A DNA stretch of 64,000 nucleotides. Source: Odobenus rosmarus divergens (lineage: Eukaryota > Chordata > Mammalia > Carnivora > Odobenidae). The translations under genes were made by a program, and so were the position numbers. The notes beneath the pieces are model-generated. The model did not search any database. It saw only the letters and a program-made list of their open reading frames with translations, and was not told where the DNA came from. Shown here one piece after another: positions 3,198 through 64,000 of the stretch. Numbering within the stretch: position 1 is the first letter of the stretch; each line of letters opens with the position of its first letter. The stretch spans positions 5,814,344 to 5,878,343 of the forward strand of contig NW_004450267.1 of the NCBI RefSeq assembly GCF_000321225.1, written 5' to 3'.

Positions 3198-5684
3198 GGG
3201 CCAGCATTACCCTGATACTAAAACCAGATACACTACAAAAAAAAGACAGAACTACAGGCCAATATCTCTGATGAACATGGATACAAAAATCCTTAACAAA
3301 ATATTAGCAGACCAAGAGCAACGATATATTACAATAATCATTCACTATGATCAAGTGGGATTTATTTCTGGGATACAAGGGTGGTTCAATATTCACAAAT
3401 CAATCAGTGTGATACACCACATCAAGAGAAAGAATTAAAAAACTACATGATCATTTCAATAGATGCAGAAAAAGCATTTGACAAAGTACAACACCCATTC
3501 ATTATAAAAACCCTCAACAAAGTAGGTTTAGAGGAAACATACCTCAACATAATAGAGGTCATATATGAAAAACCCACAATGAACATCATACTTAGTGTAG
3601 AGCTTTTCCCCTAAGATCAGGAACAAGACAAGGAGGTCCACTCTCACTGCTTCTTTTCATAGTACTGCAAGTCCCTGGCCACAGCAATCAGACAACAAAA
3701 AGAAATAAAAGGCATCCAAATTGGTTCCTTATTTGCAGATGACATGATGCTATTTATGGAAAACCCTTAAAGATTCCACCAAAATACTATTAGAAGTGAT
3801 AAATGAATTCAGTAAGATCACAGGATACAAAATCAATATACAGAAATTCATTGCTTTCTATACACTAATAATGAAGTAGTAGGAAGAGAAATTAAGAAAA
3901 CAATCCTATTTATAATTATAAAAAAATAATAAAATACCTAGGAATAAACTTAACCAAGTAGGTGAAAGACATGTATTCTGAACACTATAAAACACTGATG
4001 AAAGAAATTGAAGACAATACAAACAAATGGAAAGATATTCCATGCTCATGGATTGGAAGAACAACTACTGTTAAAATGTCCATACTACCCAGAGCATCTA
4101 CAAATTTAATGCAATTCCTAACAAAGTATAAACAGCATTCTTCACAAAACTAAAACAAATAATCCTAAAAATTGCATGGAAACATAAAAAACCCCAAATA
4201 GCCAAAGCAATCTTGAAAAAGAAGAAGAAAACTGGAAGTACCACAATCCCAGATTTCAAGATATACTACAAAGCTGTAGTAATCAAAACAATATGGTACA
4301 GGCACAAAAACAGACACACACATCAATAGAACAGAAATGGAGAGCCCAGAAATAAACCCATGATTATATGATCAATTAATCTTTGACAAAGGCGGCAAGA
4401 AGATGTAATTGGAAAAAGTCTCTTCAAACAATGGTGTTGTGAAAACTGGACAGCTACATGAAAAAGAATGAAACTAAACCATCTACATATACACAAAATA
4501 AACTCAAAATGGATTAAGGACCTAAATGTCAGACCTGAAACCATAAAAATCCTAGAAGAGAGCAGAGGCAGTAATTCTCTGACATCAGCTGTAGCAATAT
4601 TTTTTCTAAATATGTATCCTGAGGCAAGGGAAACAAAAGCAAAAATAAACTATTGGGACTACATCAAAATAAAAAGCTTCTGCACAGTAAAAGAAACCAT
4701 CAACAGAACTAAAAGACAATCTATAGAATGGGGGACAATATTCACAAATGACATATCTGATAAAGGGTTAGTATCCAAAATATATAAAGAAGTTACAAAA
4801 TTCAACATCAAAAAAATAAATGATCCAATTAAAAAATGGGCACAAGACATGAATATTTCTCCAAAGAAGACATACAGACGGCCAACAGACACATGAAAAG
4901 ATGCTCAACATGACTCATCATGAGGGAAATGCAAATCAAAACCCCAATGAGATATTATTCTACACCTGCCAGAATGGCTAAAATCAAAAATACAAGAAAC
5001 AACAAGTGATGGTGAAGGTGTGGAAGAAAAAGGAACCCTCTTGCACTGTTGGTAGGAATGAAAAGTAGTGCAGCCACTGTGGAAAACAGTATGGAGATTC
5101 CTCAAAAGATTGAAAATAGAATTACCATATGATCCAGTAATTCCACTACCCATATTCTTTGGGTAATATGAAAACACTAATTTGAAAAGATATATGCAAC
5201 CCTATGTTTATTGCAGCATTATCTACAATAGCCAAATTATGGAAGCAGCCCAAGTGTCCATTGATAGATGAATGGGTAAAGAATGGTTATATACACACAC
5301 AATGCACTATTACTTAGCCATACAAAAAATAAAATCTTGCCATTTGTGATAACATGGATGGATCTAGAGAGTATAACACTAAGTGAAATAAGTCAGGCAG
5401 AAAAAGACAAATACCATATGATTTCACTCGTATGTGGAATCTGAGAAACAAAACAAACAACAACAAAAAGAGACAAATCAAAAAAAACAGACTCTTAACT
5501 GAGAACAAACTGATGGTTACCAGAGGGGAGGTGAGTGGAGGGAATGGGTGAAATAGGTGAAGGGGATTAAGAATGCACTTATCATGATGAGCACCGAGTA
5601 ACATATAGAATTGTTCAATCCTATATTGTATTCCTGAAACTAATCCAACACTGTATGTTAACTACACTGGAATTAAAAAAAAAA
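3198..5684 (+). mobile_element. L1, 5'-truncated, degenerate ORF2 and 3' UTR
   Basis: Sense L1 that begins inside the reverse-transcriptase domain, with the catalytic FADD box at 3732-3743. It runs through several stops and frameshifts to the C-terminal part (4468-4896 is the longest intact piece), the 3' UTR and an A11 tail. Diverged target duplications AGTAACACTCAAG (3185-3197) and AGTGATACTCAAG (5685-5697) bound it, so it is a single old insertion. It cannot encode an active transposase. Confidence 0.88.
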
Positions 5685-9962: not shown

Positions 9963-10072
9963 AGGGGCACCTGGTTGGCTCAGCCGGTGGAGCATGAGAT
10001 TCTTGATCTCAGGGTTGTGGGTTCAAGTCCCACCTTGGATGTAGAGATTACTTAAAAATAAAATCTTAAAAA
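9963..10072 (+). repeat. Short tRNA-derived SINE
   Basis: About 110 bp with tRNA-like A box (TGGCTCAGCCGGTGGAGCAT) and B box (GGTTCAAGTCCC), then GATTACTT and an A-rich tail, without the CT-rich middle of SINEC. Pol III type promoter, old copy. Confidence 0.8.
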
Positions 10073-15062: not shown

Positions 15063-16238
15063 AACTAACCCAACTAGATGGGGAGGAAATGTGAGCTTGA
15101 ATTTCCAACCCAGCCTCTCCCACATGAACTGGTAAAGGAAAAGAAAAATGAACCAAAAACTTGTTTAAAATTTATGGGACTTTTCACATGAAGCATTTCA
15201 CAGACATCTGGAGGAAGAATAAATAGCCAAATATACATAAGCAGAAACTGAAACATGGAAAAGGGAAGTAAGATGTTCAGTTTTACTGAACTCATCATTC
15301 ACACATCTTAGGCAGGAATCCAGTCTTGTCAGTCCACATTTTGTACAGCAGGCCACAAGCTAACAGTGTACATAAAAGAAGAGTCAAACTTAAAAACAGC
15401 CAGGTCTTCACCTGGGCACAATATCTCATTAATTTCCCCCTGCTGATATTTTCTCACTGAAGCAAACCCTAAATATGGGAAGCACCCACACAGAGATTAA
15501 GTCACCATTTATTCAAAGCAGTTTCTAAAATCTTAACTCCTCCATTTCTAAAGGGTATGAACTGGATGACAATAGTTGCATATAAATAAATGTGAAATTG
15601 CTTAATTGCATTGTGGGGAAGGAGAGAAGGGTTTGAAGATGAAAAGGAAATGACAGAGAGATCCTGCCACTCTGACAGAGGCATGCACACAATTTCTAGT
15701 TTCATTAGCAAGCCCCCTCCCCCACACCATGGGCCATTACAATCGTCCACTTTTATACACAGGCCCTCCTTCTCGTCTTCTTCCTCACATTTGTCCCTAC
15801 CTAAGCTTCTTTCCAGGCCAGTCATAACGCCTAACCTTTGCGCCCAGAAATTCTTACAACACCAACCTTCCTAATATTGGTCCGACATACTGTCACCGCC
15901 AAGTTTCACTTGGGCCATCAACCTTGAGCCCTACTCCTATCTATAGACTCTGGCCTGTAAAATATCACCAAAGCACCTCTCAACAGCCACCTCCTCTCCT
16001 GCTCCCCCTGCCCTCAGCATATCCTACCCACACTCATTAAACCCGTTCCCTCGTCCGTCCTATCCACGCCCTGACAGTCCCTCTTCTCACAATTTCTTCC
16101 CAAACAAGTCGCCCAAAGCAGTCGCCCTAAAGTCTATCATGCCCGACACTTCTCTCGGTGCTCTCCGAGCCCTCCCAACCCTCCCGGCGGTTCGGTGCAT
16201 CCATCTGCCCCCGACTCCCCGGGCCCTTCCCAGCCCAC

Positions 16239-16303
16239 CTGCTCTCCTCCGGCAAGCGCTCCTCGCAGCCGCCGAGCTCCATTCCCGCGCCCTCTGGACG
16301 CAT
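16239..16303 (-). CDS. RUBCN: RUBCN (Rubicon) coding exon 1, partial gene
   Basis: Rubicon is a cytoplasmic/endosomal protein of about 970 residues that binds the Beclin1-UVRAG-VPS34 complex, restrains autophagosome maturation and is needed for LC3-associated phagocytosis (family knowledge). Read on the minus strand from the ATG at 16303, the exon encodes 21 residues beginning MRPEGAGMELGG and ending EERLPEES, which I recognise as the Rubicon N-terminus. It then gives two bases of codon 22 and a GT donor at 16238-16237 in the context AG|GTGGGC. The phase fits the Arg codon that follows in Rubicon. The start ATG has a weak context (C at -3); Met8 at 16282-16280 has a strong one (G at -3, G at +4). 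The frame stays open upstream but has no ATG there. All later exons lie beyond the left edge or were not found. The gene is head-to-head with FYTTD1, about 12 kb away. Confidence 0.88.
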
Positions 16304-16640
16304 CCGGGGCTGCGACGTCGCCTCCTCTCTGAAGGGAGGCGTCCCTGCCGCTTCGTCCCTCAGGGCTCCCGAAACCCCAGGGAACGGAGGAGGCACCCTC
16401 GGTAGGTGGGCTCAGGGTGATGCACTACACCCGGGTTGACAGCAGGCGCGGTGATTGCTGTCTCAGCTGCGGTTCCTAGCCCTGCCACCCCCACTTCCGG
16501 CTCCAAGAACTACAACTCCCAGCAAGCACTTCGAAGACTCGGCCGCTCCCGGCATGCTCCGCCCTGTCCAATCCGAGGCTGCGCTCGCGGCGGATGAAGA
16601 CCCTGGCTGCGTGCTCGCGGGCGTACACTAGGCGGGGAAC
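16304..16640 (-). promoter_or_regulatory. RUBCN: RUBCN CpG-island promoter and 5' UTR
   Basis: GC- and CpG-rich sequence directly upstream of RUBCN exon 1, with no TATA box. Visible elements are an ETS-type ACTTCCGG at 16493-16500, a ZNF143/THAP11-like ACTACAACTCCCAGCA at 16509-16524, and a CCAAT box at 16568-16572. All lie within about 80 bp, a typical housekeeping promoter layout. The exact transcription start cannot be read from the sequence. Confidence 0.7.
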
Positions 16641-22770: not shown

Positions 22771-22995
22771 AATGGGATGATTTTTAAAGCTTTTGAAGAA
22801 TTTTGTCAGATCTTTATTGACTGGTTCTAGTCTGTCTTCACAGCAACATTTCTATTTTAACTATTCCACTTTAACTATTCAGTATTGGTTAATTTATTCA
22901 ATTGTATGGGAAAGCTCATTGTCATCCATGGGTAATGCATACACATTCAGAAATTAAGAAGTTACAATGAAATTTTTAAAAAATCTTATTTCCAG

Positions 22996-23217: not shown

Positions 23218-23323
23218 AAAATCTTATTTCTAGGCTAAGCAAATCCTTAACACATTTAAAGAATATTCAATAAGTCGCTGTCTCAGCTCTCTGAAACTCT
23301 AGCTGAATAAACCTGAGCCAAGA

Positions 23324-23481
23324 GAATGGATCCTCTCCTGAGGGAAAGAGAAAGATGAGAGTCCAGCCATGGCTCTTGATCCCAGAACAAGGAGGCCAAG
23401 GGGCAAAGGGAGAAGAAGCATGGGGAAAAGAAAGAATGCCTAAAGACCCCATGACTCTGGAATCCTGGCTTTCCAGAACCT
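23324..23481 (+). repeat. Source-like copy of a 158-bp dispersed duplication
   Basis: Non-repetitive sequence (starting GAATGGATCCTCTCC, ending TTTCCAGAACCT) that recurs at 25163-25320 with about four mismatches. No coding signature. Confidence 0.95.
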
Positions 23482-24752: not shown

Positions 24753-25132
24753 ATCACTCATGAAAAGAAAAACAATATCCCTGACAAAGCATTAGCAAAC
24801 CAAATCCAATAATATATAAAAATGATAATACACCATGACCAAGTAGGTTTCTCCTAGAAATGCAAGGGTAGTTCAACATCTGAAAAAAATAATAAAAATT
24901 TTAAAACCCCATTTGGTCATCTCAATAGGTGCAGAAAAATACTAGATAAAATTTGACATTCACTCATGATTAAAACTCTCCGCAAACCAGGAATAGAAGG
25001 AAACTTCTTCAACCTGACAAAGGGCACCTACAAAAAAATCTAACATAATGGTGACAGATAATGCTTTCCCCCCGGGGTTTGTCATAAGGGAAAGATCTTC
25101 ATTTCACCTCCCCTTTTAAATATGGTACTGGA

Positions 25133-25464
25133 GGGGCGCCTGGGTGGCTCAGTCAGTTAAGCGAATGGATCCTCTCCTGAGGGAAAGAGAAAGATGAGAG
25201 GCCAGCCATGGCTTTTGATCCCAGAACAAGGAGGCCAAGGGGCAAAGGGAGAAGAAGCAGGGGGAGAAGAAAGAATGCCTAAAGACCCCATGACTCTGGA
25301 ATCCTGGCTTTCCAGAACCTGAGCCTTAAGCTCAGGTCATGATCTCAGGGTCCTGGGATGGAGCCCTCATTGGGCTCCCTGCTCAGCAGAGAGCCTGCCT
25401 CTCCCTTCCCCCTGCTCAAGCTCTCTCTCTCAAATAAACAAATAAAATCTTAAAATAAAAAAAT
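25133..25464 (+). mobile_element. CAN-SINE interrupted by a 158-bp copied segment
   Basis: The SINE head (GGGGCGCCTGGGTGGCTCAG to TTAAGC) ends at about 25162. 25163-25320 is a copy of 23324-23481. The SINE resumes with CCTTAAGCTCAGGTCATGAT and runs to its A-rich tail. A perfect target duplication AAATATGGTACTGGA (25118-25132 and 25465-25479) bounds the whole, so the SINE itself inserted normally. Confidence 0.95.
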
Positions 25465-27119
25465 AAATATGGTACTGGAGTCCCCAGGCAGTGTAATCAG
25501 GCGAGCAAAAGAATAAAAGTCATACAGATTGGAAACAATTAGGCTGAGTGAAGTAATCCAAACTAAAAAAAGAATATATACTATATGATTCTACTTATAT
25601 AAAATTCTGGAAAATGCAAATTAATCTGTATGATCAGTGGTTGCTTAAGTAGTGGTTGGGGAAAGGATTATAAAGGAGCACAGGAAAACTTTTGGGGATG
25701 ATAGATACATTTATTATCCTCTTTATGGTGGTGTTTTTGCAGGTCTATATACCATATGCCCATATAAACTGCACACTTTAAATATGTGTCTTTTATTATC
25801 TATCAATTACACCTCAATAAAGCTGAAAAAAGGGGGACTTAGAGGAAATATCAAACTAATAAAAATAAGTTAAGGAGTGAAATACGTGAAATGTGCTTAC
25901 GTTTGAAGAGAATGTAGATCTCTATGCACATTTTGAGAAGAGAGCCACATGTTGATAGAAGGTATGATGTTGCCGGATTTAGTAAAAGTAAAAATATAAG
26001 ACTCCCAGTTAAATTTGAGTTTCAGATAAATAATGAATAACTGTTTAATATAAATATATCCTAAATATGGCATGCAACATCCTGTAGTAGAGAAATTTGC
26101 TATTTATTCATTGTTTATCTGAAATTCAAATGTAATCAATCTCATATTTTATCTGGCAACTCTAGACATTGTCTTATGTATGCTGTATGAAATCAAGCCT
26201 CTGAAAAGACAGGTACTTGAATTCCATGTTTATTCTGACTTAGATGAAGCTGCTGAACTACTGTACTCCAGACAATGACTATATATTCAGTGTCCGGCGC
26301 AGTACTGTACTTATTCACAGTAGCTACTCAAAAAAAAATTTTTTTTGCTCTGCAACTGTATGAAGATAGGAGCTGAATCCATCTTTACTCATCATTTTAT
26401 CCCCAGAGCCTATTACAATGCTTGGTGCTCAATGATTGTATAATTAAATGAATAACTGCCTTTCATGCCCCAGAAAATGAGGAGTTGACCTTTTAACTCC
26501 AGCCCTTATGGCTGGCAGATCTACTTCTTAGATGAGCTCCAGTTCTGATTTCTAGGTTTGTCTTCCACTCCACTTTTGCTGTATGTGTCTCAGGTTGCTG
26601 TTTTGTTTTCTACTATTTTGATGTGACTGACCTATCCTTACACAATGTTTCTCATTTCCTTGTTTTTCCCTTTGGAATCTGGGTGACTACTCTGAGACTC
26701 AGACCCTCAGCCTTTGGGGAAATCTCAAAGTCTGAAACACAACAGCTAGGATTGCTTAATGAAACATTGGGGCATGTTCCCTTTAAAGTTAAGGAGATTT
26801 GGAGTCGAGCTTCAGTTCTGGGGAGAAGATCAGGATAAAAGGGAATCTTTATATATATTGGTGGTGGGTAGGATTTTATACATTTGGGATTTTTCTTATC
26901 TGTCCTATGAATACCTGAAGTACAAAATGCATCCAAACTCTAAATGCATTACTTTTCTTCCATAACATTAAGAACTTAGCCTAATGTTCTTTCCTGTAGA
27001 TTACTTCCACAAATAAGCAGAGATTATAGAAATTATTTCTAGGGAGAGAATGATATTGTGAAGAAAAATGTTTCATGCATAGATTTTAGAACCATAAGAA
27101 ATCCAAGAATAATTACGTA

Positions 27120-28399: not shown

Positions 28400-28631
28400 C
28401 CTCCTGTCCGACAAGGGCCGCTAAGAGCAAGCCCGGGCGTGGGGCCGCTCTCGCCGGCCGCTCGTCTCTGTAGCCCCTCTCCCCGCCCGCAGCCGCGGGT
28501 GGGAGAGCGAAGGCGCCGCTAGCACGCGTGCGCGCTCCCTCGGTGCAGCTAGTCTGCGTGCGTGAGTGGGAGGTGGCAGGCCTCGGTCTCCGGCCTTCTC
28601 CGCTGACTGTTCCAGCGCGACGTCCCCGGCC
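28400..28631 (+). promoter_or_regulatory. FYTTD1: FYTTD1 CpG-island promoter and 5' UTR
   Basis: Strong CpG enrichment begins near 28400 and runs through exon 1 into intron 1, to about 29330. No TATA box is seen. A GC-box-like CCCCGCCC lies at 28481-28488 and a CpG-rich alternating purine-pyrimidine stretch near 28520-28535. The start codon at 28632 has G at -3. The reading frame is open for 22 codons upstream but starts with GTG, so an upstream start is unlikely. Confidence 0.7.
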
Positions 28632-28737
28632 ATGAACCGGTTTGGTACCCGGTTAGTGGGAGCCACGGCGACCCCACCGCCGCCGCAGCCGAAAGCCCGC
28701 AGCAATGAAAACCTTGACAAAATTGATATGTCTTTGG
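28632..28737 (+). CDS. FYTTD1: FYTTD1 exon 1 (coding part)
   Basis: Encodes residues 1-35 plus the first base of codon 36. It begins [14 protein letters not shown], followed by a run of four prolines. The donor is G|GTAAGG at 28738, phase 1. The exon ends inside the UAP56-binding motif, just after Met-Ser-Leu. Confidence 0.96.
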
Positions 28738-31700
28738 GTAAGGAGCCGAGTTGGACCGAGTGGGAGTGGGGGGAGGGTGTGGGTGGAACCAAGTACCGCG
28801 GTTTGTGGGGGAAGGGGCGGTTGGCCGCAGTTGTCTGTTGAGTTTTTCTTTGCGGGTGGGCGGAACCAAGTGAGGGCCCACGGGGACAGGGGGAGCGCCA
28901 GCTGGTGCGGTGGTTGAGCCGGAGGGACCCGGCGTCCCCTCGGCGGGGCTGTGTCTGAGGAGGGGCAGTGGGGGCGGGCGGCGCTGCGGGCTAGGGGTTT
29001 TGAGGGTCGAGGGGCGCTACCACTCGCGGAAGACCGCGGCTCTTTGTGAGGAAAACTCCGGGCTTTCCCCTCAAGCGTGTTCGCTGTCGGCGGTGTCAGG
29101 GGAGCGAGGGAAACATCCTTGCTGAAGAAAGCCCTTTGAGAGCCCAGCCAGGTCTGCGTTCGGTTAAGAGTCGCTGGTTCAGGAGAGGGCTCGTTGGGCA
29201 TTTGTGTGGCCAGGCCTACGCCTGGCGCGGGGCGGGCAGCGCAGAGACGCCCCCGAGAGTTGGCCATTTCTGCCTGGCGCCAGACCTCGGGGCCACAGCG
29301 GGGGGGCCACATCGGGGCGCCCACCCTGGAGCGTTTGTCAGAATATCATTAGGCAATGGCTTCATTAGATGGTTTTATTAGGAGGTGCCTAGAAAGGCGC
29401 TCTCTCTTTATCTAGGCCGCAAAGTTAGCTAATTAGGAAAAAAGCAAAGACCGAAGGAGAGATTCACATGGATTAATGGGAAGCCGGGTGAAGCATGGGG
29501 TCCAGCCCCTATAAGGAAGAGTGGAGTGCTTTGGTGAGGATTTTGTAGAAAGTAGGAGGGTCGGTGATTCAATTAAACATTCAGACCTAACACTAGTGAG
29601 GCACTAGCCCCTGGATTAGCTGGTTTAAAAGTTAACCAGCTTTTTGTCAAGATTCAAGTTACCATTATCAGATGTGGTTCTGCCTGCTCTTTTTGTGGCC
29701 TATAGTTTTTCGGATAAGTGTTTGAAAAGTACCTGACAGGTGGATACAGAGGTGTAACTTTTCCAAGGAAGGTATTTTTCTTTTTTGCTGTGGTTTATCT
29801 GCTAAGTTTTAAGTCAAAAATCAAAAACTCTTGGATTGCTGCGATTACCACACATCAGAATCTAATATGTGGATTAAGTAAATCATCAGAAATAATAGGT
29901 TTGGCCTCAAGTCTTGTCTTGCTGATAGTAGTGAACTCTAAAGAAATGAGAAATCTTTTCAGCTAAGGCCAAGAAGAATTTGATAACGAGTATTTATTGA
30001 GTGCTTACCACCTTGCAGGCACTGATCTAAACATCTGATGTGTGTTAACTCGGTTTAGTCTCCTAATAACTCTATGAGGTATGTGCTCCTAATGATAAAA
30101 AGCATGGAATCCAGAACCACACTGTCTTCATTTCAAATCCCCTGCCACTTACTACCCTTTGGTCACAGGCAAAGTATTTCTCAGTGCTTCATGTGTAAAA
30201 AGTGGTAGTAGTGCTGGTCTGTCTCAGAGGGTTGCTGTATTAAATGAGTCAATAGGCATATATAAACCGCTTAGAACAGTACCTGGTACACAGTAAGCAT
30301 TATATTTACATAAACACACTATATAAGCCATTGTTGTTATTTCTGTTTTACGAAACCTGAGGCATAGAGAAATAACTTGCCCCAAATCATACAAATAAAA
30401 AAAAACTTATAGATGTTGCTGGAAGTGTTAAACATGTATTATCATAACCAATACATTTCTTAAGTTTCTAGGTTTTTTTGTATTATTTTGTTTGGTTAGG
30501 ATGTTCAAGTGAAGAAAATGGAGGGATAATTCTCTTTGAAGTAGAAACGAAGTGCTATGATAGATAGCTAAAGTAGACATTGGTTTCTTTTCTCTCCTCC
30601 AAGAATATATAGCATTCTTTCAGATTCCATTTTTTTTAATTGAGGATTTTACAGAAATGGGATGAAGAAATGGTACTTTTTTTTTTAGTAGTCTCTACAC
30701 CCAACCTAGGGCTCAATTTTATGACCCTGAGATCGAGTTGCATGCTCTTCTGACTGAGTCAACCAGGCACCCTGAGATGATACCTATTTTAGACAGTTAC
30801 TATGCTTTGTAAATATTCCACTTTATCAGGTCTGCAGAGGTTTAGAATCTGATTTTTGTTTTAAATGGTGGCTGTATGAATTATATGAATATTCTTATAG
30901 AATATCTACCAAGGTTACCGATAGCTGGCCTCATTGTGGTTCAGTTTCTTATTTTGAAAATGGGTATTATAATACTTCATAGAATTGTTGTGAGAATTAA
31001 ATGAATACTTGTGAGAACAACGCTTCTTAGTTACTACTGTTTTTATTACCATGTATATATCCCTAATGTCATGGAAGAAATTTTTTCATAAAAGTAGCTC
31101 ATTGTAATGGGATTTTTGTTTTTTTCTGATACATACCCTGTCTACCTGAGTAGGAGAAAGCCATTTTCTTCTTTTAGATTGGAGGAATCCACAGTCAATC
31201 ATTTAACTTGAAGATTTAGATAATAAAACATTTAAATATAAAGCAATTTTATATTTCATATGTTTTGCTACTTTTAATTTTATGTTTATACTTTATAAAA
31301 TGCTGTATTTTAAAATAAACCTGGTTAGTCAAAATTATATTTTGCCTTTTTTTTTTTTTTTAATGATCCTCAGCAAATTCATTTTTTTGGTGTACTCTCA
31401 TGGCTCTGAGATTTCATACTTCTGGGGAAGAATAAGTAGCACCTTATCAAAGGAAAGTAGTGTTTCAAAAGTGTTCGAAAGTATTCCCTTTCTGCCCCCT
31501 GAGAATATAACATGTTCATGTATCTGATTTCATGAAACTTTTTTTTTTTTTAAAGATTTTATTTCTTTATTTGAGAGAGAGCGAAAAAGAGCACAAGTGG
31601 GGAGTAAGAAGGGGCAAGATGGAGAGGGAGAAGCAGACTCCCCGCTGAGCAGGTAGCCCAGTGCTGGGCTGGGTCCCAGGACCTTGAGATCATGAACTGA

Positions 31701-34700: not shown

Positions 34701-37700
34701 ACTCCCTGCTGAGCAGAGCTAGATGCGGAACCTGATGAGGGACTCCACCCAGGGCTCAACCCCACGTCCCATGAGATCACGACCTGAGCTGAAACCAAGG
34801 GTTGGATGCTCAACTAACTGAGCCACCTAGGCGCCTCTTCTCTAGTAATTTCTTAAACTGAACCCAAGCAAGTAAATTTTGTGACAGATATTTAGCATAG
34901 CAAATGAATTTTTAATACTAGTGTATTATATTTAAAGATTCTTATTAAATGTTACTCAGCATACCATATTTTATACATGATTTGCTTTAAAATAATTTCA
35001 GAGTTCACAGAAACCAGAAATATATTTCTTTTCACTAGCCACATGTTAAATACATGATAAATGCACTGAATTGACCAGTTCTCAAAGGTATTTAGAGATG
35101 TGATCTTTTACTTCAAGGAATTTCTAGTAACAGAGAGAGGACAAAAAACATGGAGTTGAGAAATGTCATGAGAGAAATTCCAATAGTACCATAGGACTTT
35201 AGATAGATTTTGTGCTAAGAAAATCAGTGGGGATTTAATGGATAAGGTGAAATAGGATCTGGTCCATGAAGGATCAGAAAAGCTTTCCTTTTATGGGGGT
35301 TATGATCTGAGCTTTAAGATAAATGATACCGGGGGGCAGCTTAGGATCTTATAAGATTGAACCTGTGCTTGTTTGTTCTCTGGTTACATGTGACAGAGCC
35401 TAAAATAGAACATCTACTTCTGTCACTGAATGTGCAGAGAGATAGAAGATTGTCTCAGACTCATTGGTTAGAAGTTCAGATTTCCACATTGTAATGTCAG
35501 TGAGGATGTTAGCTTGAGGTAAAAGAACATGTAAGATAGAGAGCCTTTGGCAGACTCTCAATAAATTATTTATTTTTTAAAGATTTTATCTTTTTAAGTA
35601 ATCTCTACACCCAACTTTGGGGCTTGAACTTAAAACCCTAAGGTCAAGAGTCACATGTTCTACTGATGGAGCCAGCTAGGTGCCCCTCCGAATAAATTAA
35701 TTTTGATGGCTGAACAAATAAGTGTATAAAAATCTTCCTAATTCTTGGCCCAAAATATAATTTAGTCACTCATTAAATACTTGTATAAACAACCTGAATA
35801 TTCTTCAGTGGTTGAATAGTATACAGCATCGGTTCAAAGTGTTGTTCAGGGACCCTGGGGAATCCCCAACACTCAAGGGGTCCACAAGGTCAAAACCATT
35901 TTTATAATAATACTAAGACATTGTGTTTTTACTGTTTACCCTTTCATGAATGTTTTCCAGAGTCTACATGACACCCTGTGATAATTAAATTGAATGTGGT
36001 AGCAGATATAAGAATCTAGCTATCTTTATTAAGGTAGACACCAAAGAGATTTGCAAAAATACAAAACAGTGCTATCATTCCTTTTAAATAGTTTTGGGAT
36101 TTTGGGGGAAAATAATTGTTATTTTTCATTAAAAATATGTTATTTGCCCTGTAGTGGGTTTATTATTGTTGCTTTAATGAAATAACAAATAGCTTTTAAA
36201 TGTTTTATTTTTCATTTCTAGTATGATAATATCAATAAACATAAACCCACAGAAACAAAAATTCTGGAGTTCTCAATAATTAGGAGTATAAAGGGGTCCT
36301 GAGGGGCACCTGGTTGGCTCCGTTGGTTAAGCAGCTGCCTTCAGCTCAGGTCATAATCTCAGGGTCCTGGGATCCAGCCCCACATCAGGCTCCTTGCTCA
36401 GTGGGGAGTCTGTTTTTCCCTCTCCCTCTGCCCCTTCCCCCACTTGACTGTCTTTCTCTCTCTCAAATAAATACATAAAATCTTAAAAAAACAAAAACAA
36501 CAACAAAAAACAGAGGTCCTGAGACCAAAAAGTTTGAGAATGGTGTTTCTTTCAGAAGTAGAAGAGACGGGAATATTTGTATGTTGCTTTGGAAAGGAGC
36601 CAGTAATATGACTGCATTCACTGTGATTCGACATTTCCCAAAAACCCCTAAAATCTTTGTGTAGGTGATCAGACTCCAGAAAGTACTGAGGCAAGTTGAT
36701 AAGTGTATGAGAGAAATTCACAAAGGGATTGCGCTAAGGATGCAAACATAAGATGAAAATTCCCATCTTTAGTTTTAATTGTCAACCTTGGTCATGCCTG
36801 TTGGAGCTTTATAAACTAGACTGATGCTCTGGCTGCACTCCATTTCTACTCAAGCAGAATCTGTAGAAGTTGGGCCTAGGGATTTTTTTTTTTAAGCTTC
36901 ATATGTGGTTCTGATACATGGCTAGGGTTAAACTGCTCTAGTATAGCTGAAAATGAAAGGATTTTCATAGAGGTAGTAGTTGAAGTAATTAAGAATGAAG
37001 ATACGCTGGAAAGACAGGAGAGAACTTTCTAGAGGGGCTGGAATGGATGAAAACTGAGAAAAGATGGGGCGCCTGGCTGGCTGAGTCTGTAGAGCATGAG
37101 ACTCTTGATCTTGGGGTTGTGAGTGCAAGCCCCACATTGGGCGTAGAGCTTACTTAAAAAAAAAGCCAAGAAAGGACTTACCATATTAGATGATGTCTTT
37201 AGTATCTCTATGATGCTTTTTATAAGGCACTTACAGTAGGTAAGAAGGGAGAGAATTGGGACAGTATGTATAGGTCTTTCTTTATGAAACGTGACAATGA
37301 AAGGGTGAAATATAGAACCATTGCTAAAATTGAGGTACAGCTGGTGAAGTTTGTTTCAAGGTATAAAGGGAGGGAGGGGGAAGGGATGATCTAAGCTTGC
37401 TAGAAGGTAGAGAAGCCACTCGTAGAAAGAAAAGTGGAAAGGATAATGAGTATGAGAGCAGTGACTATAGCAGTCAGAAGTAGAAGGCACCCAGGAATAG
37501 ACTTATGTCTTATACTTTCTCCTTTTAATCAGTTTTATTCTTGCCTCATCTGAGCTTAAAACTTTGGTATAATAATGGATTCCTTCTTTCTTTAATCTTT
37601 CTCTTTGCTAATTCATTCATTCTTTTGGAATACTTTCAAATTTCTTTGTTCCACTCCCCATCCTTTATCATGTCATGTTTGAGTACTACAGTAGCATCTG

Positions 37701-40700
37701 AAATGGTCTCACTGCCTTCTTTCTCCCTCTTTCATTCAAAGATACTGCTTCTAGGCTGATGTAACCTGATCATGAATTCTGTGACCCCTCATTCTTTGTC
37801 AAGTGTATTCTTTATCCCCCCATAAAGCCCACTGATTTTTTTTTTTTATAAAGCCCACTGATTTGAAGCCACCGCATTCATTTAATTCTTTTTCCTAAAC
37901 TGTATCTCAATATGCTGTGGTTACCCATGTCTTTGTACTTGTAAGTTTGTTTATCTCCCTAATCAAATTTTGTCTGTTTTATAATGCCTAGCTGAGAGCC
38001 CACTTTTTCTGTAATAATTGTTCTTTTCCTCTTTGGAAATGTATCCTAGATTATATTTTTTACCTTTTATTCTTTAGTTTTTATATTACAGTTTGGAAAG
38101 TGTTCAGTTTTTGGAGCCATACTAACTTGCACCTAGATTGATGGCTGTGCGATTTTCTAACTGTGACAATCTGGGTAGTCAGTGTTTTTCACCTCACTTT
38201 GCTCACCTGCAAAATTAAGATGTTATCATCAACCCCACCAAGTTCTTAACCTTTTTTTTTTTTTTTAAAGATTTTATTCATTTATTTGAGAGAGAGAGAA
38301 TGAGAGACAGAGAGCATGAGAGGGAAGAGGGTCAGAGGGAGAAGCAAACTCTCCGCTGAGCGGGGAGCCCGATGTGGGACTCGATCCTGGGACTCCAGGA
38401 TCATGACCTGAGCCGAAGGCAGTCGCTCAACCAACTGAGCCACCCAGGCGCCCAACCCCACCAAGTTCTTGTTTAAAGTACTCAGCACAGTGTGTTAACA
38501 GAGTTAACGGTATCTGTTTCATATTTAATACAAATAAAAATAACAAGTAGTTGTAAATTTAATTTAGATATACAGGTTCCCTCAACATGCTTAATCTTTA
38601 TTTGGTTGCAATTCTAGAAGGAAATCACACATAGAACAACAATAATTTGGTTTCAAAGGGTACCTGGCTGTCTCAGTCAGAAGAGTGTGTGACTCCTGAT
38701 CTCAAGGTCATGAGTTCGAGCCCCATATTGGGTGTAGAGATTACTTAAATAAATAAAACTTTAAAAAACCCCAATAAATTTGATTTCACAATTTAAAAAA
38801 TTGTGTCTTTATTGCTTTTCCCCTGGGTATAAAAGTAATCAGTACTTTAGGACTGAGGCAGAGTACCCAAGAAAGGAACAAATCTGGAAGAACTCCCTGT
38901 CACATGGAGTTGCCATTCTGGTGGAACTCACTAGGAAGCCACCTGTGGGGGTGATGCAACTTAAATTCAATGGAGGATGAGTATGGCCAGAACTATAGTG
39001 ATGCCTAGGACTAGATCTGGACAGATGCCTAAGGCCCAGCATTGAAGGTGTCACTCACACTCAGATTTTGTGCCCTTGGTGCTTCTCTTGCCTCACCAGT
39101 CTCAGCTTGCAGCGGAGGGATAATGAGTACCACTAGGTTTTCTGTGCCCCAGAATAAGTCTTGAAGTGTACACTGGAACCTGAAAGTAAAAATCCTTTCT
39201 CTAGAGTCTCTCCAGTGCCCTCTATTTACAAAGCTTATCATTGTGCCTGCTGGTAAGAGAAATGTTCCTGTAATAGAAGCAGGGCAGTAAAGAGTGAATT
39301 GGGAGTTGAAAGGCAATAAATTGGTAAATGGTTCAACTATTATAACACGTTTTCCTATCTTGTTGAGCTCTGTTCTCAAAATAGGTACACTACACAAAAG
39401 CATTCTGGAATTAGGTAAGTTTGGGAATACATACACTATTATCCCCAACTTAGAGATTCATTACACACATTAGTCCTAAGAAATCCTATAGTAAAGAAAA
39501 CAATTTTAACTATTTTTAGTTTGGCCATGAAACTTTTCTGTTAGAAAACCTGTTACCATATTGCAGGTGTGTAGTATTATACAGGGATACCATTCTAAAG
39601 ACATTCCCCCCAAAATAAGAATTCCAGATTAGAAATGCACAGGGCACCTTGGTGGCTCAGTCAGTTAAGCCTTTGGCTCAGGTCATGATCACGGTTCTGG
39701 GATTAAGCCTTCCATGGGGCTCCCTGCTCAGTAGGGAGTTTGCTTCTCCGTTTCCCTCTGCCTGCAGCTCCCTCTGCTTGTGTTCTCTCTCTCTGTCAAA
39801 TAAATAGATAAAATCTTAAGAAAAAAATAAAAATGCCCAGTATCACAATTGTTACTTAGCATGGTTCTCTGGAATTTCTGGTCACTGCATTAAGACATAG
39901 AAGAATTTGAGGTGCAGTTAGAAAAAAGAAGACCATATCATTTGCAGGTGATAAGTTGTTGCTCAGTAATCCCAAGAAAATAATTTGTTTTTTTCCCCCC
40001 AAGAAAATAATTCGAAAGACTATAGAACTAAAAAAGTAAGTTCAGTGGGATGGTCAATTAAAAGGTATTAATTAAAAACTTCAGTAGCTTTTGGTAATCC
40101 CAGGAATGACAATATGAAAATTACTGTTAGAAAAGGGATCTTTTTTTTGTGATTGACAACAAAATATATAAAATATGTAGGAGTAAACTTAAGAAAACTG
40201 AGTTTAGTGATGAGAAGCCTTGAATAAGTGGCAAGACATACTGTGTTCATGAATATTGTAAAGATGTCAATTCTTAAAAAATTACTTGTAAATTTAATAT
40301 AATTCTTTCAAAGTACCAAAGGATATTGGGGTGCCTGGATGGCTCTGTTGGGCGTCTGCCTTCGGCTCAGGTCATGATCCCGAGGTCCTGGGATCGAGCC
40401 CCGTGTCGGGCTCCCTGCTCAGCGGGGAGCTTGCTTCTCCCTCTCCCTCTGCTGCTGCCCCTGCTTGTTCTCTCTCTCTCTCAAATAAATAAATAAAATC
40501 TTAAAAAAAAAAAACTATTAAAGGATATTAAAACTTGACCCCAGAAAACGTACTTATGAACATGACAGTTCACGAATGGAAGAATAGCTAGCCAAAAACA
40601 CATGGAAAATGTCCATTCTCACTAGTAAACTACCAAATAAGACAAGATTTTTTTTTTCAAATACCAAGTGATAAAGATTAAAGAGAATATTCAGTATTGT

Positions 40701-59488: not shown

Positions 59489-62240
59489 AGGTTTACTGAT
59501 GTTTAAAGATGAATAGGAAATTAATTCCCTAGTGTATATGTGTCTAATTTCTACTTCTGTTTCCACTTTAATGAGAAGAAAATCATATTGTCTAAATTTT
59601 CTTGTATAAAGTTTTAAAAAGTTATTAGCACTGCTTATTAAAGGAGTCAGAAAGGGAGGAACCAAACATTTATTGAATGTATTCAACAAGCCAGTTTCTG
59701 TGCATTACATTTGAAGAGCGTAAGATTGGTCAAGATTTTAATCCCACTGCTTTTGAGTTTATAAAAATGGAGTCTTAAAGGAGTGACCACAAATATTTCT
59801 AGTGAGTAGAAGAAGGGGGAAAGGATTTTATTTCTGCATGAGGTAGTGAGATACAGAGCTGGAAAATTCTTCAGATTTTGAGTGAAACTATTGCCCCTGG
59901 TATTCATTCAATGAGAACTTTCAGAGAAGCAGGAAGTTCTCTGTATCAATTCCTAACGTTCAATAACCCTCACTGCCTATTTTTTTCAGCTCCTGCTTCC
60001 AAACCACAGAGCGGTTGTAGAATAAGTTATAGGCCCCTGTAGCCCTTTTGCTCATAGCCTTTTTGCAACTGTTCCTCATCACCTTTATTCATCACTAGAC
60101 ACTTTGGTGAAATCCGCACAGTGATTCCATTTCCTGTATCTCATTCTCACAAGATGATCTCACTTGTTTTATGGGGAAGACAGTAGGTTGAGAATTCCCT
60201 CAAATTCTACCTTTGTAGATGAGAGCTGAAATCCTTAGAAGTCTTAAAAGTTAACACCTTGATCTACTTTTCTTCCAGCCTCTCTTTACCTAGGACTTGT
60301 TCTTAAGTATATATAGCATCTTCATTTCTCCTCCTATCCACAGGCTTTTCTTTTGGACTTCAAATACCTATAGATTTGTCTACCCTGTTCTAAAAAAAAA
60401 AAATGTGTTTTTGTCTCCAACCAAGCCTTCTTTTTCATAGTAGTATATAACCTCTGCTGTGTTAGTACATAACTCATCTGTGTCTGCTTCCATTCATTCT
60501 TAGCTCCTATTAAAATACTCAGCTCTGGGGTATGGAAGGTAATTACAGAGTTTAATGTATTAATGACCTTAAAATGTAGTTTGGTAGACAAAGTAACATC
60601 AATCTATAAACTTGGTCAGAAGTTCAGAGACCAGGATTAGCATGGTATGTTGCAATTATGAGATACGTGTGTAGGTAGGTAGGAAGAATGAGGCCATATT
60701 ATGGAGAACTTGTTAGAAGAATTTAGTGTAAATGTGGAAGGTAATAGGTAATCAAATTCAGATGACATAACGGTGCATTTTATAAAGGTATCTGGTAACT
60801 AGCATTGTAGCGTTAATATGGAATATGATTATGCTTTTAGTCAATGTAGTTGAAATATTTCTTAAAAAAATACAAAATGAGGTCCTGCTCTTAAATAGCT
60901 TAAAATCTTTCTGAGAAGAACAATTTAGAAAGAATAATGAAAAACATATTGGATAAGTTTTTTTGACCTGACACATCACTTGCCATTGCAGTGACCCATG
61001 CTCATCACAGACATTGATAATCGGTCATGGAATTTGCTGCTGAAGATCCTGGAATGTAGTATTAAGAGTTCATAGAACAACTCTCTGAGCAACTGTTACG
61101 AATCAACTTTGTCACTAAGATTAAATGTTTTTACAATCTCTTCCATCTAGGAGTTGGGGGAAGTGCTAATCAAAGTTTCATTGAAGAGTTGGGCTTTGAA
61201 TGATAGGATCTCCAACCTTATTTTCTTTTGCTGGCTCATGAAATTTTTTGGCTTTGGCCTTAAATGTTCTCCACACGGACCATTATAAATCATACCTGGG
61301 TGTGTTCATGCTGATACTCCTCCCAATCTGGAATATTGCTCTCACCTTCCTACTATTGCCTATTTCATAGTCCTTCAGATTTTAGCCAAAACCATTCATC
61401 CATGATACAGATTGCTTTTCTCTGAATTCTGATAGCTTAACCCCACTACCTCTACTCAGCCTTTTTTTTATCCTCTAATTGGTATATTTGTCTGGATTAT
61501 TAGATTGTAATCTCCTAGGAAATGGGGCCTGACAGCCTCTTTTATTTCCCACAAATACTAGTCGATTGACTGTAGGGGAATTTACATCATGTAGTAGGAA
61601 TGGCTTAAATGTGTAAAAGAGTATGCTGGAGACTGGCTACAATGTAAATGAGGCCTAATTGGTTTAAAATGAAGTAGTGGCTTCCAGTTTTTCAGTAACA
61701 GTGATTTTGTTTCTTCCATTCTATTTCTAATTCCCACATTTAGATTATAGTCAGATCATTTTTTTCCCTCAATTTTCGTTCCAGACAAAAATTTTAGACT
61801 TTAATGCCGTTCATCCTGATTTGTTCAACAATAAAATCTTGCCTAAAGGACAGATACTATTTAAAATGTTTATTTTTGTTAAGATCTATTTTATAAAAGG
61901 GAGGACCCAAAACATATAACACTTTCAATGAGGATCATGAGTTTGGGAGCCAAGTTAGCACTTATTTTTCCCTCTGACAATAGTAGTTCATAAATCCACG
62001 TCTCCATCTAGATCACTTGGTGTATAGAATGACAGCAGTTGGGAAAACGTTTTATAGGTCGTATCCCAGGGTTCCCTCCTCTCATTGCCTATGTTTCTAG
62101 TAGCAACAGTGTTGAGAAGCCCTAATTTAATTCTTAATCTAATCCTCCGGTATTGAGGGAGGAAGGCAGAGGAAGTTTCTGTGAGGAGCGTTGTCTGAAA
62201 GATTTTTTAGTAGAGGCGTGTTAAAAATGATACTGGGAGT

Positions 62241-62455
62241 CTAGAGGACGGTGCTGCTCCAGATATATGAGTTCCGTTTTAATTTCGCTTGAAATCCTCG
62301 ACGTGGGCGGAGGCGAGCGCCTGGATGTGCGGAGGGCCACTGCAGCCCTGCCCATCGAGGGAACCGTCCGGGGTCGGATTGCCCCTTTCCCCGCCCACCC
62401 ATCAGTTCTGGCAGCGCATGCGCTGAGCCGCGGGCTGGAGAGTTGTCGGCTGGAA
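62241..62455 (+). promoter_or_regulatory. LRCH3: LRCH3 CpG-island promoter and 5' UTR
   Basis: CpG-rich and TATA-less. A 12-bp palindrome AGCGCATGCGCT at 62413-62424 is a good NRF1-type site, 32 bp before the start codon. A GC box CCCCGCCC lies at 62389-62396. An in-frame ATG at 62267 is also present in this stretch. Confidence 0.7.
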
Positions 62456-62717
62456 ATGGCGGCCGCTGGCTTGGTTGCTGTGGCCACGGCTGCAGAGTAC
62501 TCTGGCCAAGTAGCATCGGGAGGTAACCTCTCCGGTGTTAACTGCGGCCCAAGCTCCGGGACAGGCTCTGGTCCTGGCCCGGGTTCGTGGAGCCGCTCCC
62601 TCGATCGAGCGCTGGAGGAGGCGGCAGTGACCGGGGTGCTGAGCCTGAGCGGCCGGAAACTGAGGGAGTTTCCCCGGGGAGCGGCCAACCACGACCTGAC
62701 GGACACCACCCGGGCGG
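62456..62717 (+). CDS. LRCH3: LRCH3 coding exon 1, partial gene
   Basis: LRCH3 (leucine-rich repeat and calponin-homology domain protein 3) is a cytoplasmic protein that works with DOCK7 and MYO6 in a complex acting on septins (family knowledge). The exon encodes residues 1-87. It starts MAAAGLVAVATAAEYSG, then has a Gly/Ser/Pro-rich stretch, then the start of the LRR region with LEEAAVTGVLSLSGRKLREF (residues 53-72), and ends LTDTTRA. The donor is GCGG|GTGAGT at 62718, phase 1, which would make an Asp codon with the next exon as in the known protein. The ATG has G at -3 and G at +4. The LRRs and the C-terminal CH domain lie beyond the right edge. Confidence 0.93.
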
Positions 62718-64000
62718 GTGAGTGGGGCATGGGGCATCCCTGCAGAAGAGGAGCCTGGGGCGCGGCGGGAGGCCCCTCCAGCCGGTGGGAGGATTCGGGG
62801 GTAGTTCCAGCAACCGGTTCCATAGCTTCTGGTTGGGACCCGAGTAACGGGGAGAAGCCGACTGCCCCAACCCGGCCAGCCCCCCAGGCCTGCGGGCCAG
62901 ACCCCGAGCCTAGGGCGAGGCGGCGGACTGCAGCATCTCTCGGGAAAGAGGACCGTAGGGATAGATGGGTAGTGTTTTACTCTCCTAGAAAATTTAACTT
63001 CTGCCGCTGCTGAGGTAGACCCTTGCCCCGCCCCGGTTTCTGCAGGCCCTTTCAGATTTGGGATGCCAACCTTGCTGAGATTTGGGATTGTAGCTCTCTC
63101 TTAATAGATCAGAGCAGCACTGGTCACTGCGTTGTCGGGGAAGTATTGATCTGAGCACTGACGTTTCTTCGAGAGTTGTTTTTAAGGTGAATCCTAGGCT
63201 GTAACTTTTCTTTCTCTGTCTTTATCTGGTTGACTTAGGAGAGTTAACTTGTGGAAATAACTGGAGCCAACCTTCAGACTCGCATTACTTTTCTCCTCAT
63301 GCCCTCCCAGAAAAGTTGAGGGAAGAAAAGATACATATATTGCCTACCGTGTCTGTATTTAATGCTTTTTAAAAATAAACATTACTTTGTTTTATACATA
63401 TTTTTGAACACAGGAAAGGTAATAAGGAATTGGGTATTATTTGGTTTTCTTAGTTGTAGAGAACAATGTCTGGTGACTGAGGCGTTCAACATAATATGTT
63501 TTTCTTGTGTTTAAAATATAGCTTCCTCAGGGAGTAGATTAAAAACTGAGTCTATTCATGTTTAACACAAAGGAGGAAAAAAAAAATCCCTTCATGTTTG
63601 TATAGTATGATGTAGTTAAGTATTTGATTTTGATATAGTTTTTTGCAATGAAAGAATGTATAGTACTTTGTGTCCTATATTTATTCCATTTTACTTTATT
63701 TTAAAATTTGTTTTAATAATTTTCTATGTGCACTTACTAAAGATTGATGAGTATTACATATGATTCACTTGTGTTAGAAAAATAAATGGAACTGTTAAAC
63801 TACTTCAAGAAACTTCTTTCCGGAGAAACTTTCACTCTGGTGTAAAATGGAAGAAAGTAAATGTCTAATTATTTAATCTCTTTTTGGAAACAGTTGTACT
63901 GAAGATAGTTTGTATTTTTTAGTGAGTGTTATAAAAATTAAGCTTTCTTGCTAAGGTAAATATGAACAGCCACTTGCCTTTTGCGTATGTTCTGATAGAC
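62718..64000 (+). other. LRCH3: LRCH3 intron 1, 5' part
   Basis: Begins with GTGAGTG. The first 220 bp are still CpG-rich; the rest is AT-rich with no interspersed repeat or exon recognised. The intron runs off the right edge. Confidence 0.8.

What the first reader, a model, noticed from the sequence alone, without database searches (positions are those of the whole stretch)
25118..25479. SINE carrying a 158-bp near-identical copy of sequence 1.8 kb upstream
Bases 25163-25320 match 23324-23481 over exactly 158 bp with about four substitutions and no gaps. The copy sits inside the head of a CAN-SINE that still has a perfect 15-bp target duplication at its outer ends. So either the SINE landed first and a templated insertion then repaired a break within it, or the SINE transcript/cDNA switched template during insertion. 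A few SINE bases at the junction (the expected TCT of GCGTCTGCC) are missing, which favours break repair. Both junctions fall in unrelated sequence except a shared G/GA.
Basis: seen in the sequence. Interest (0 to 1): 0.75.

Follow-up and report, generated by a model that had tools for sequence, protein, structure and literature searches.

The report
Circle-like DNA patch inside a SINE
A small jumping element in a carnivore-type genome was broken and patched with a nucleosome-sized copy of nearby DNA, and the order of bases at the patch's end suggests that the patch may have been a tiny DNA circle before it was inserted.

Summary
Bases 25163-25320 repeat 23324-23481 at 154 of 158 positions without gaps, inside a CAN-SINE with a 17-bp perfect target duplication. 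Genome searches with the block and with the donor plus flanks found these two places only (counts are lower bounds).

New here: the right junction is not random filler. AACCTGAGCC at 25316-25325 is identical to 23310-23319, just upstream of the donor start, and occurs nowhere else in the window. The donor is flanked by AACCT repeats that delimit a 167-bp unit. The insert equals that unit opened once, rotated, minus 4 bases: 163 bases, 4 mismatches. None of 78 other aligned SINEs carries GA at this spot.

The best reading is capture, in a break, of a nucleosome-sized DNA circle (microDNA) closed by microhomology; polymerase slip-back would give the same order. Circle-mediated duplication is known for kilobase-scale segments; this would be its microDNA-scale counterpart. 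The permuted tail is only 5 bases, so the circle is plausible, not proven. Relatives could not be searched.

The parts
25117..25133 (+). left target-site duplication TAAATATGGTACTGGAG of the SINE (first and last base ambiguous); preceded by TTT
   Evidence: family D11, 17 of 17 identical; sequence
25134..25162 (+). SINE head, GGGCGCCTGGGTGG...GTTAAGC
   Evidence: (D6)
25163..25320 (+). main block of the insert, copy of 23324-23481, 4 of 158 differ; its first G is shared with the SINE (GCG)
25321..25325 (+). GAGCC, matches 23315-23319: the permuted end of the insert; GCC is shared with the SINE, GA is not in the SINE
25323..25463 (+). SINE body and A-rich tail, resumes at GCCTT; TCT (or GTCT) of the SINE is missing
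25464..25480 (+). right target-site duplication
   Evidence: family D11
23324..23481 (+). donor of the main block, intact
23315..23481 (+). 167-bp donor unit that would form the inferred circle, GC 51% against 38% for the window
   Evidence: circle inferred
23310..23314 (+). AACCT, left direct repeat of the unit
23477..23481 (+). AACCT, right direct repeat of the unit; the circle junction would lie here
23320..23323 (+). AAGA, the only 4 bases of the unit absent from the copy: inferred opening point of the circle
   Evidence: inferred

Best explanation
A full-length CAN-SINE inserted first by LINE-type target-primed reverse transcription (inferred from its A-rich tail and 17-bp duplication). 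Later the SINE was broken about 30 bp from its 5' end, between TTAAGC and GCCTT, losing TCT or GTCT. The break was patched by a DNA fragment copied from 1.84 kb upstream (shown: source, orientation, near-identity, intact donor). The patch was most likely a microDNA: a 167-bp fragment (23315-23481) closed into a circle through its AACCT end repeats, opened once at 23319/23324 with loss of AAGA, and joined to the SINE ends through 1-bp (G) and 3-bp (GCC) microhomology (inferred from the permuted order). I put break repair in an existing SINE at about 0.9, and the circular intermediate at about 0.5, which is the confidence given here.
For: AACCTGAGCC spans the right junction (25316-25325) and occurs in the 64-kb window, both strands, only there and at 23310-23319, ending 5 nt before the donor start. 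Rotating the 167-bp unit reproduces 163 bases of insert with the same 4 mismatches. A simulated random donor plus random 2-nt filler gives such a 10-nt match beside the donor start in 8.3e-5 of 300,000 trials. GA is not seen as a SINE variant: of 78 other SINEs aligned, 65 have CT before GCC, 10 CC and none GA; 'GAGCCTTNNGCTCAGG' has one match in 264 kb, this locus. Total microhomology of 5 bp or more flanks a random 167-bp unit in 0.7% of placements. The insert is one lap minus 4 nt, as a circle cut once predicts; for a slip-back the exit would fall within 5 nt of the entry in about 4% if uniform over a lap (my assumption). Germ-cell eccDNAs centre near 180 bp or its multiples, are GC-rich, and are attributed to microhomology end joining (PMC10581685: abstract, passages, section 10). 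A donor left intact fits the proposal that microDNA formation need not leave a deletion (PMC8599734, passages).
Against: The permuted tail is 5 bases, of which only GA is independent of both microhomologies, and I noticed the match after the fact. If the match could lie anywhere within 500 bp on either strand, chance rises to 2.4% of 100,000 trials. Only about a third of germ-cell eccDNAs had perfect homology of 1 bp or more, mostly shorter than 5 bp, and that paper regards germ-cell eccDNAs as products of cells likely dying and barely tied to germ-line deletions, which speaks against frequent return to chromosomes. One case only. The age difference between SINE and insert is not significant on the strict count (P 0.13), and the perfect 17-bp duplication suggests a SINE that is not very old.
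Confidence: 0.5

Rival explanations
1. Serial template switching (MMBIR/FoSTeS or polymerase-theta type repair) without a circle: synthesis left the SINE, copied 23324-23481, slipped back 167 nt on AACCT, copied GAGCC, and returned to the SINE on GCC.
For: Every step has microhomology: imperfect AAGNG with final G, then AACCT, then GCC. Multi-step switching is an established repair outcome (recalled; named as a model in passages).
Against: Needs two coincidences that a circle gives for free: slip-back to just upstream of the entry point, and exit within 5 nt of it (about 4% if uniform).
Confidence: 0.27
2. Simple templated insertion: the 158-bp block was copied into the break and GA is non-templated filler; the flank match is chance.
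For: Class 2 templated insertions show microhomology and non-templated bases at junctions (PMC5110952, parts 1 and 2 of 4).
Against: The chance of a 10-nt junction-spanning match beside the donor start is about 8e-5, or 2.4% in the loosest search.
Confidence: 0.15
3. Template switch during the SINE's own reverse transcription: cDNA left the SINE RNA, copied the block, and returned to the SINE RNA.
For: The SINE is full length with a perfect duplication; a perfect 17-bp duplication and only 4 insert differences do not demand two dates.
Against: Needs two switches and a return to within 3-4 nt of departure; the SINE appears older than the insert (ratio 2.9-3.9; 1 of 6 testable CpGs intact), though the strict count is not significant.
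Confidence: 0.04
4. Capture of a reverse-transcribed circular RNA: on the minus strand the AGGTT junction can be read as AG|GT back-splicing.
For: GGCTCAG|GTTCTGG fits a back-splice at one of the ambiguous positions (sites printed).
Against: Any repeat containing AGGT fits automatically; the sites are poor: CAG|GTTTAT, and 44% pyrimidine in the 18 nt counted before the acceptor.
Confidence: 0.04

Closest known systems
eccDNA-mediated segmental duplication (Durkin 2012 cattle, seen only as cited in PMC9527254 and PMC9132208; Chicote 2020 PMC7450558; Takahashi and Innan 2020 PMC7188851)
   Same: Copy inserted elsewhere with block order B-A instead of A-B; microhomology and short indels at the junctions.
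   Different: Takahashi and Innan start from segmental duplications (over 1 kb) and Chicote from large ones; here the unit is 167 bp, the second block 5 bp, and the site 1.8 kb away inside a SINE.
Class 2 templated sequence insertion polymorphism (Onozawa and Aplan, PMC5110952)
   Same: Break-repair signature: micro-deletion and microhomology, no poly(A) or duplication around the insert itself; size within the 73-414 bp of their experimental inserts.
   Different: Their donors are distant regions and the template is argued to be RNA; here the donor is local and the order is permuted.
microDNA / germ-cell eccDNA (PMC8599734, PMC10581685)
   Same: Size of about one nucleosome, GC-rich unique donor, short direct repeats at the ends, donor not deleted.
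   Different: They are seen as free circles; here the trace is a chromosomal insertion.
MMBIR/FoSTeS template switching
   Same: Short microhomologies and return to the original template.
   Different: Does not by itself predict a unit-length, once-opened order.

Membership tests
CAN-SINE | conserved head and body shared with other copies | tested here: met
CAN-SINE | A-rich tail and target-site duplication | tested here: met
   17 of 17 bp; tail
eccDNA-mediated duplication | syntenic order changed from A-B to B-A in the same direction | tested here: inconclusive
   met at base level, 163 bases with 4 mismatches, but the second block is 5 bases
eccDNA-mediated duplication | microhomology or short indels at fusion and insertion junctions | tested here: met
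   AACCT at the fusion, G and GCC at insertion, 3-4 SINE bases lost
eccDNA-mediated duplication | size over 1 kb, as in the segmental duplications searched so far | tested here: not met
   167-bp unit; definition from PMC7188851
microDNA | free circle demonstrated | not testable with these tools
   no circular-DNA sequencing data at hand
Class 2 templated sequence insertion | no duplication, poly(A) signal or tract at the insert; microdeletion and microhomology | tested here: met
   read from the sequence
Class 2 templated sequence insertion | donor in a distant genomic region | tested here: not met
   donor 1.84 kb away
Class 1 (LINE-type) insertion of the block | own target duplication and poly(A) | tested here: not met
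   none seen at 25163-25325
circular-RNA-derived pseudogene | back-splice junction at real splice sites | tested here: inconclusive
   AG/GT can be read but the sites are weak

The most novel reading that the evidence does not exclude
A base-resolution fossil of a single nucleosome-sized microDNA circle reintegrating into a mammalian germ-line chromosome as a patch at a break, which would make many 'templated insertions' of 100-400 bp candidates for circle capture.
Probability: 0.45. Interest if true: 0.7.

Novelty: new variant of a known kind. Interest (0 to 1): 0.5.

Why it matters
Germ cells hold many nucleosome-sized circles (PMC10581685), but I found nothing at hand on whether circles of this size return to germ-line chromosomes. 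A SINE is a good recorder: its uninterrupted sequence is known from many copies, so lost and gained bases can be read exactly. The signature found here (unit-length copy, permuted, donor flanked by short repeats) can be searched for in any genome and would turn the question into a count. Even if the circle reading fails, the case documents local, multi-junction templated repair inside a retroelement.

Tried and rejected
Known repeat family: rejected, two genome matches only, block alone or with flanks. Chance similarity: rejected (E 2e-75). Assembly duplicate: unlikely given 4 substitutions and the rearranged junction, but reads were not available. GA as a natural SINE variant: 0 of 78 aligned SINEs have it (65 CT, 10 CC, 1 AG, 1 TT, 1 gap). 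Of 56 loose pattern matches in 264 kb one other, preceded by CTTTGA, ends in GA, but it lies at another part of a SINE; TCTGAGCCTT occurs once at -26573, in no SINE context. Homology-guided copying from the SINE upstream of the donor (head near 22994): rejected, the copied block begins about 330 bp after that head and contains no SINE. Tandem duplication followed by deletion: would need a deletion end within a few bases of the duplication end. Dating SINE against insert: direction as expected, strength weak; the target ranks 23 of 79 in non-CpG divergence, so it is not unusually old, and one of its 6 counted differences is the junction itself. Relatives: no match of one 36-nt pattern in viral or prokaryote contigs; the own-genome tool has no relatives here.

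Full report
What is there. One SINE occupies 25134-25463 between 17-bp identical target duplications, 25117-25133 and 25464-25480. It starts after CCTTTT/AAAT, like the TTTT/A preference of LINE-dependent insertions given in PMC5110952. Twenty-nine bases into the SINE, a 158-bp block identical at 154 positions to 23324-23481 interrupts it; the two lie in the same direction, 1,839 bp apart. The block, and the donor with its flanks, have no further match in the genome search (lower bounds).

Base rate. In 264 kb of contiguous sequence (9,304 N), a self-comparison kept 2 low-copy local pairs of at least 40 bp and 85% identity within 30 kb: this one and an 80-bp inverted pair 18 kb apart. Such copies are rare here but not unique.

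Junctions. Uninterrupted SINEs read TTAAGC-GTCT-GCCTT (among 56 loose pattern matches in 264 kb, not all of them SINE heads, the commonest preceding hexamers are GCGTCT 21, GCATCT 10, GCGACT 7). The interrupted one reads TTAAGC-[GAATGG...AACCT]-GA-GCCTT. On the left only G is shared in register between SINE and donor, with AAG matching two bases before. On the right the donor continues TCCTAG, so GA belongs neither to the donor's continuation nor to the SINE: of 78 other aligned SINEs 65 have CT, 10 CC, 1 AG, 1 TT and 1 a gap there, and none GA. The pattern GAGCCTTNNGCTCAGG has one match in 264 kb on either strand, this locus.

The templated junction. The ten bases AACCTGAGCC across the right junction (25316-25325) occur in the window, both strands, at one other place, 23310-23319, ending five bases before the donor block begins. 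AACCT is also the last five bases of the donor block (23477-23481). So the donor holds AACCT twice, delimiting a 167-bp unit, and the insert runs from 23324 to the second AACCT and on into what follows the first AACCT, stopping at 23319. Taken as a circle closed at AACCT and opened at one point, the unit gives 163 bases of insert with 4 mismatches, the same four as in the main block; the missing four bases, AAGA, are those between exit and entry. In simulation with random donors and random 2-nt filler a 10-nt junction-spanning match beside the donor start arose in 8.3e-5 of 300,000 trials; allowing anything within 500 bp on both strands raises it to 2.4% of 100,000. The match was noticed on inspection, so the smaller number is optimistic.

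Order of events. The SINE resumes in register, losing TCT or GTCT, and nothing marks the block as a retro-insertion of its own. A switch during SINE cDNA synthesis would need to leave and return within a few bases of the same RNA. Divergence agrees weakly: 4 differences over 2 x 163 lineage-sites in the insert against 4 of 114, 6 of 145 or 7 of 145 in the SINE by three ways of counting, ratios 2.9, 3.4 and 3.9, P 0.13, 0.053 and 0.025 (core counts, the 3' arm differences and the 145 sites by eye). If the SINE rate is taken as known without error, 4 differences or fewer have P 0.011 to 0.0005, which overstates the case. One of 6 testable CpGs is intact in the SINE; 19 of 79 SINEs, itself included, keep as small a share or less. 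By plain non-CpG divergence it ranks 23 of 79, so it is not among the oldest, and the perfect duplication also points to a SINE of moderate age.

Mechanism. Circle capture explains unit length, permutation, AACCT repeats and one opening point together. It fits what is published on microDNA: microhomology-dependent formation, with donors proposed to be restored rather than deleted (PMC8599734, passages); germ-cell circles centred near 180 bp or its multiples, GC-rich, attributed to microhomology end joining (PMC10581685, abstract, passages and section 10). Against it, the same paper finds perfect homology of 1 bp or more in only about a third of circles, mostly under 5 bp, and sees them as products of cells likely undergoing death, barely associated with germ-line deletions. 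The unit is 167 bp with 51% GC, at the 90th percentile of the window. Serial template switching with slip-back on AACCT gives the same product at the price of two positional coincidences. Untemplated GA is simplest in steps but leaves the ten-base match to chance. None of these was shown by experiment; the shown part is the sequence relation.

Precedent. Order-changed duplications through circles are published for large human segments (PMC7450558, abstract and passages; PMC7188851, abstract and the first of three parts of its text, which takes segmental duplications over 1 kb) and for an SVA-linked case (PMC9132208, passages, which calls the characterised events few). Searches for microDNA with reintegration and direct repeats (8 papers), eccDNA with circular permutation, insertion and germline (none), circular intermediate with dispersed duplication and insertion (none), eccDNA with templated insertion (4 papers), two of microDNA, eccDNA and insertion polymorphism (10 of 178 listed), eccDNA with sperm, microhomology and nucleosome (10 of 11 listed) and eccDNA with SINE, reinsertion, evolution and breakpoint (2 papers) showed me no title or abstract start that describes a microDNA-sized germ-line reinsertion. 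The library lacks most subscription journals and I did not read most of those papers, so this is not proof of absence.

Setting. The site lies about 3-5 kb left of a CpG-rich stretch whose plus strand encodes MNRFGTRLVGATAT...KARSNENLDKIDMSL (28566-28838), which I recall as the start of FYTTD1; Pfam's FYTT family matches it at E 0.00091 with 19.1 bits, just under its cut-off of 21. An ORF at 62231-63010 resembles the LRCH3 N-terminus from recall; Pfam finds nothing in it. No function is proposed for the insert; it is most likely neutral (inference).

Verdict. A real, well-preserved templated insertion; break repair in an existing SINE about 0.9; circular intermediate about 0.5. Interest 0.5, rising to 0.7 if relatives or a genome-wide scan bear out the circle.

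Noticed in passing
94,006 to 93,927 bases left of window start (C4, within L013; donor 112,183 to 112,104 left, in L011): An 80-bp inverted copy, 91% identical, of a sequence 18 kb away abuts L1-like sequence (L1 naming recalled): perhaps a second, older local templated insertion.
   Followed up: partly
window 39663-39690, SINE: Another SINE reads GTTAAGCCTTTGG, lacking GCGTCT at the same spot where the studied SINE was interrupted.
   Followed up: no
window 28566-28838 (+) and 62231-63010 (+): ORFs in CpG-rich stretches: the first looks like the first coding exon of FYTTD1 (Pfam FYTT 19.1 bits, below the cut-off of 21), the second like LRCH3 (recalled, no Pfam match).
   Followed up: partly
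window 9969-10041 and 37071-37143 (+): Two tRNA-family matches in Rfam (43.2 and 30.8 bits); gene or tRNA-derived repeat not settled.
   Followed up: no
window 4468-4896 (+): A 142-aa ORF that reads like a piece of LINE-1 ORF2 (recalled; no significant Pfam match).
   Followed up: no
window 16001-16500: A stretch with GC 0.65 and CpG ratio 0.77 away from the two promoter-like islands.
   Followed up: no
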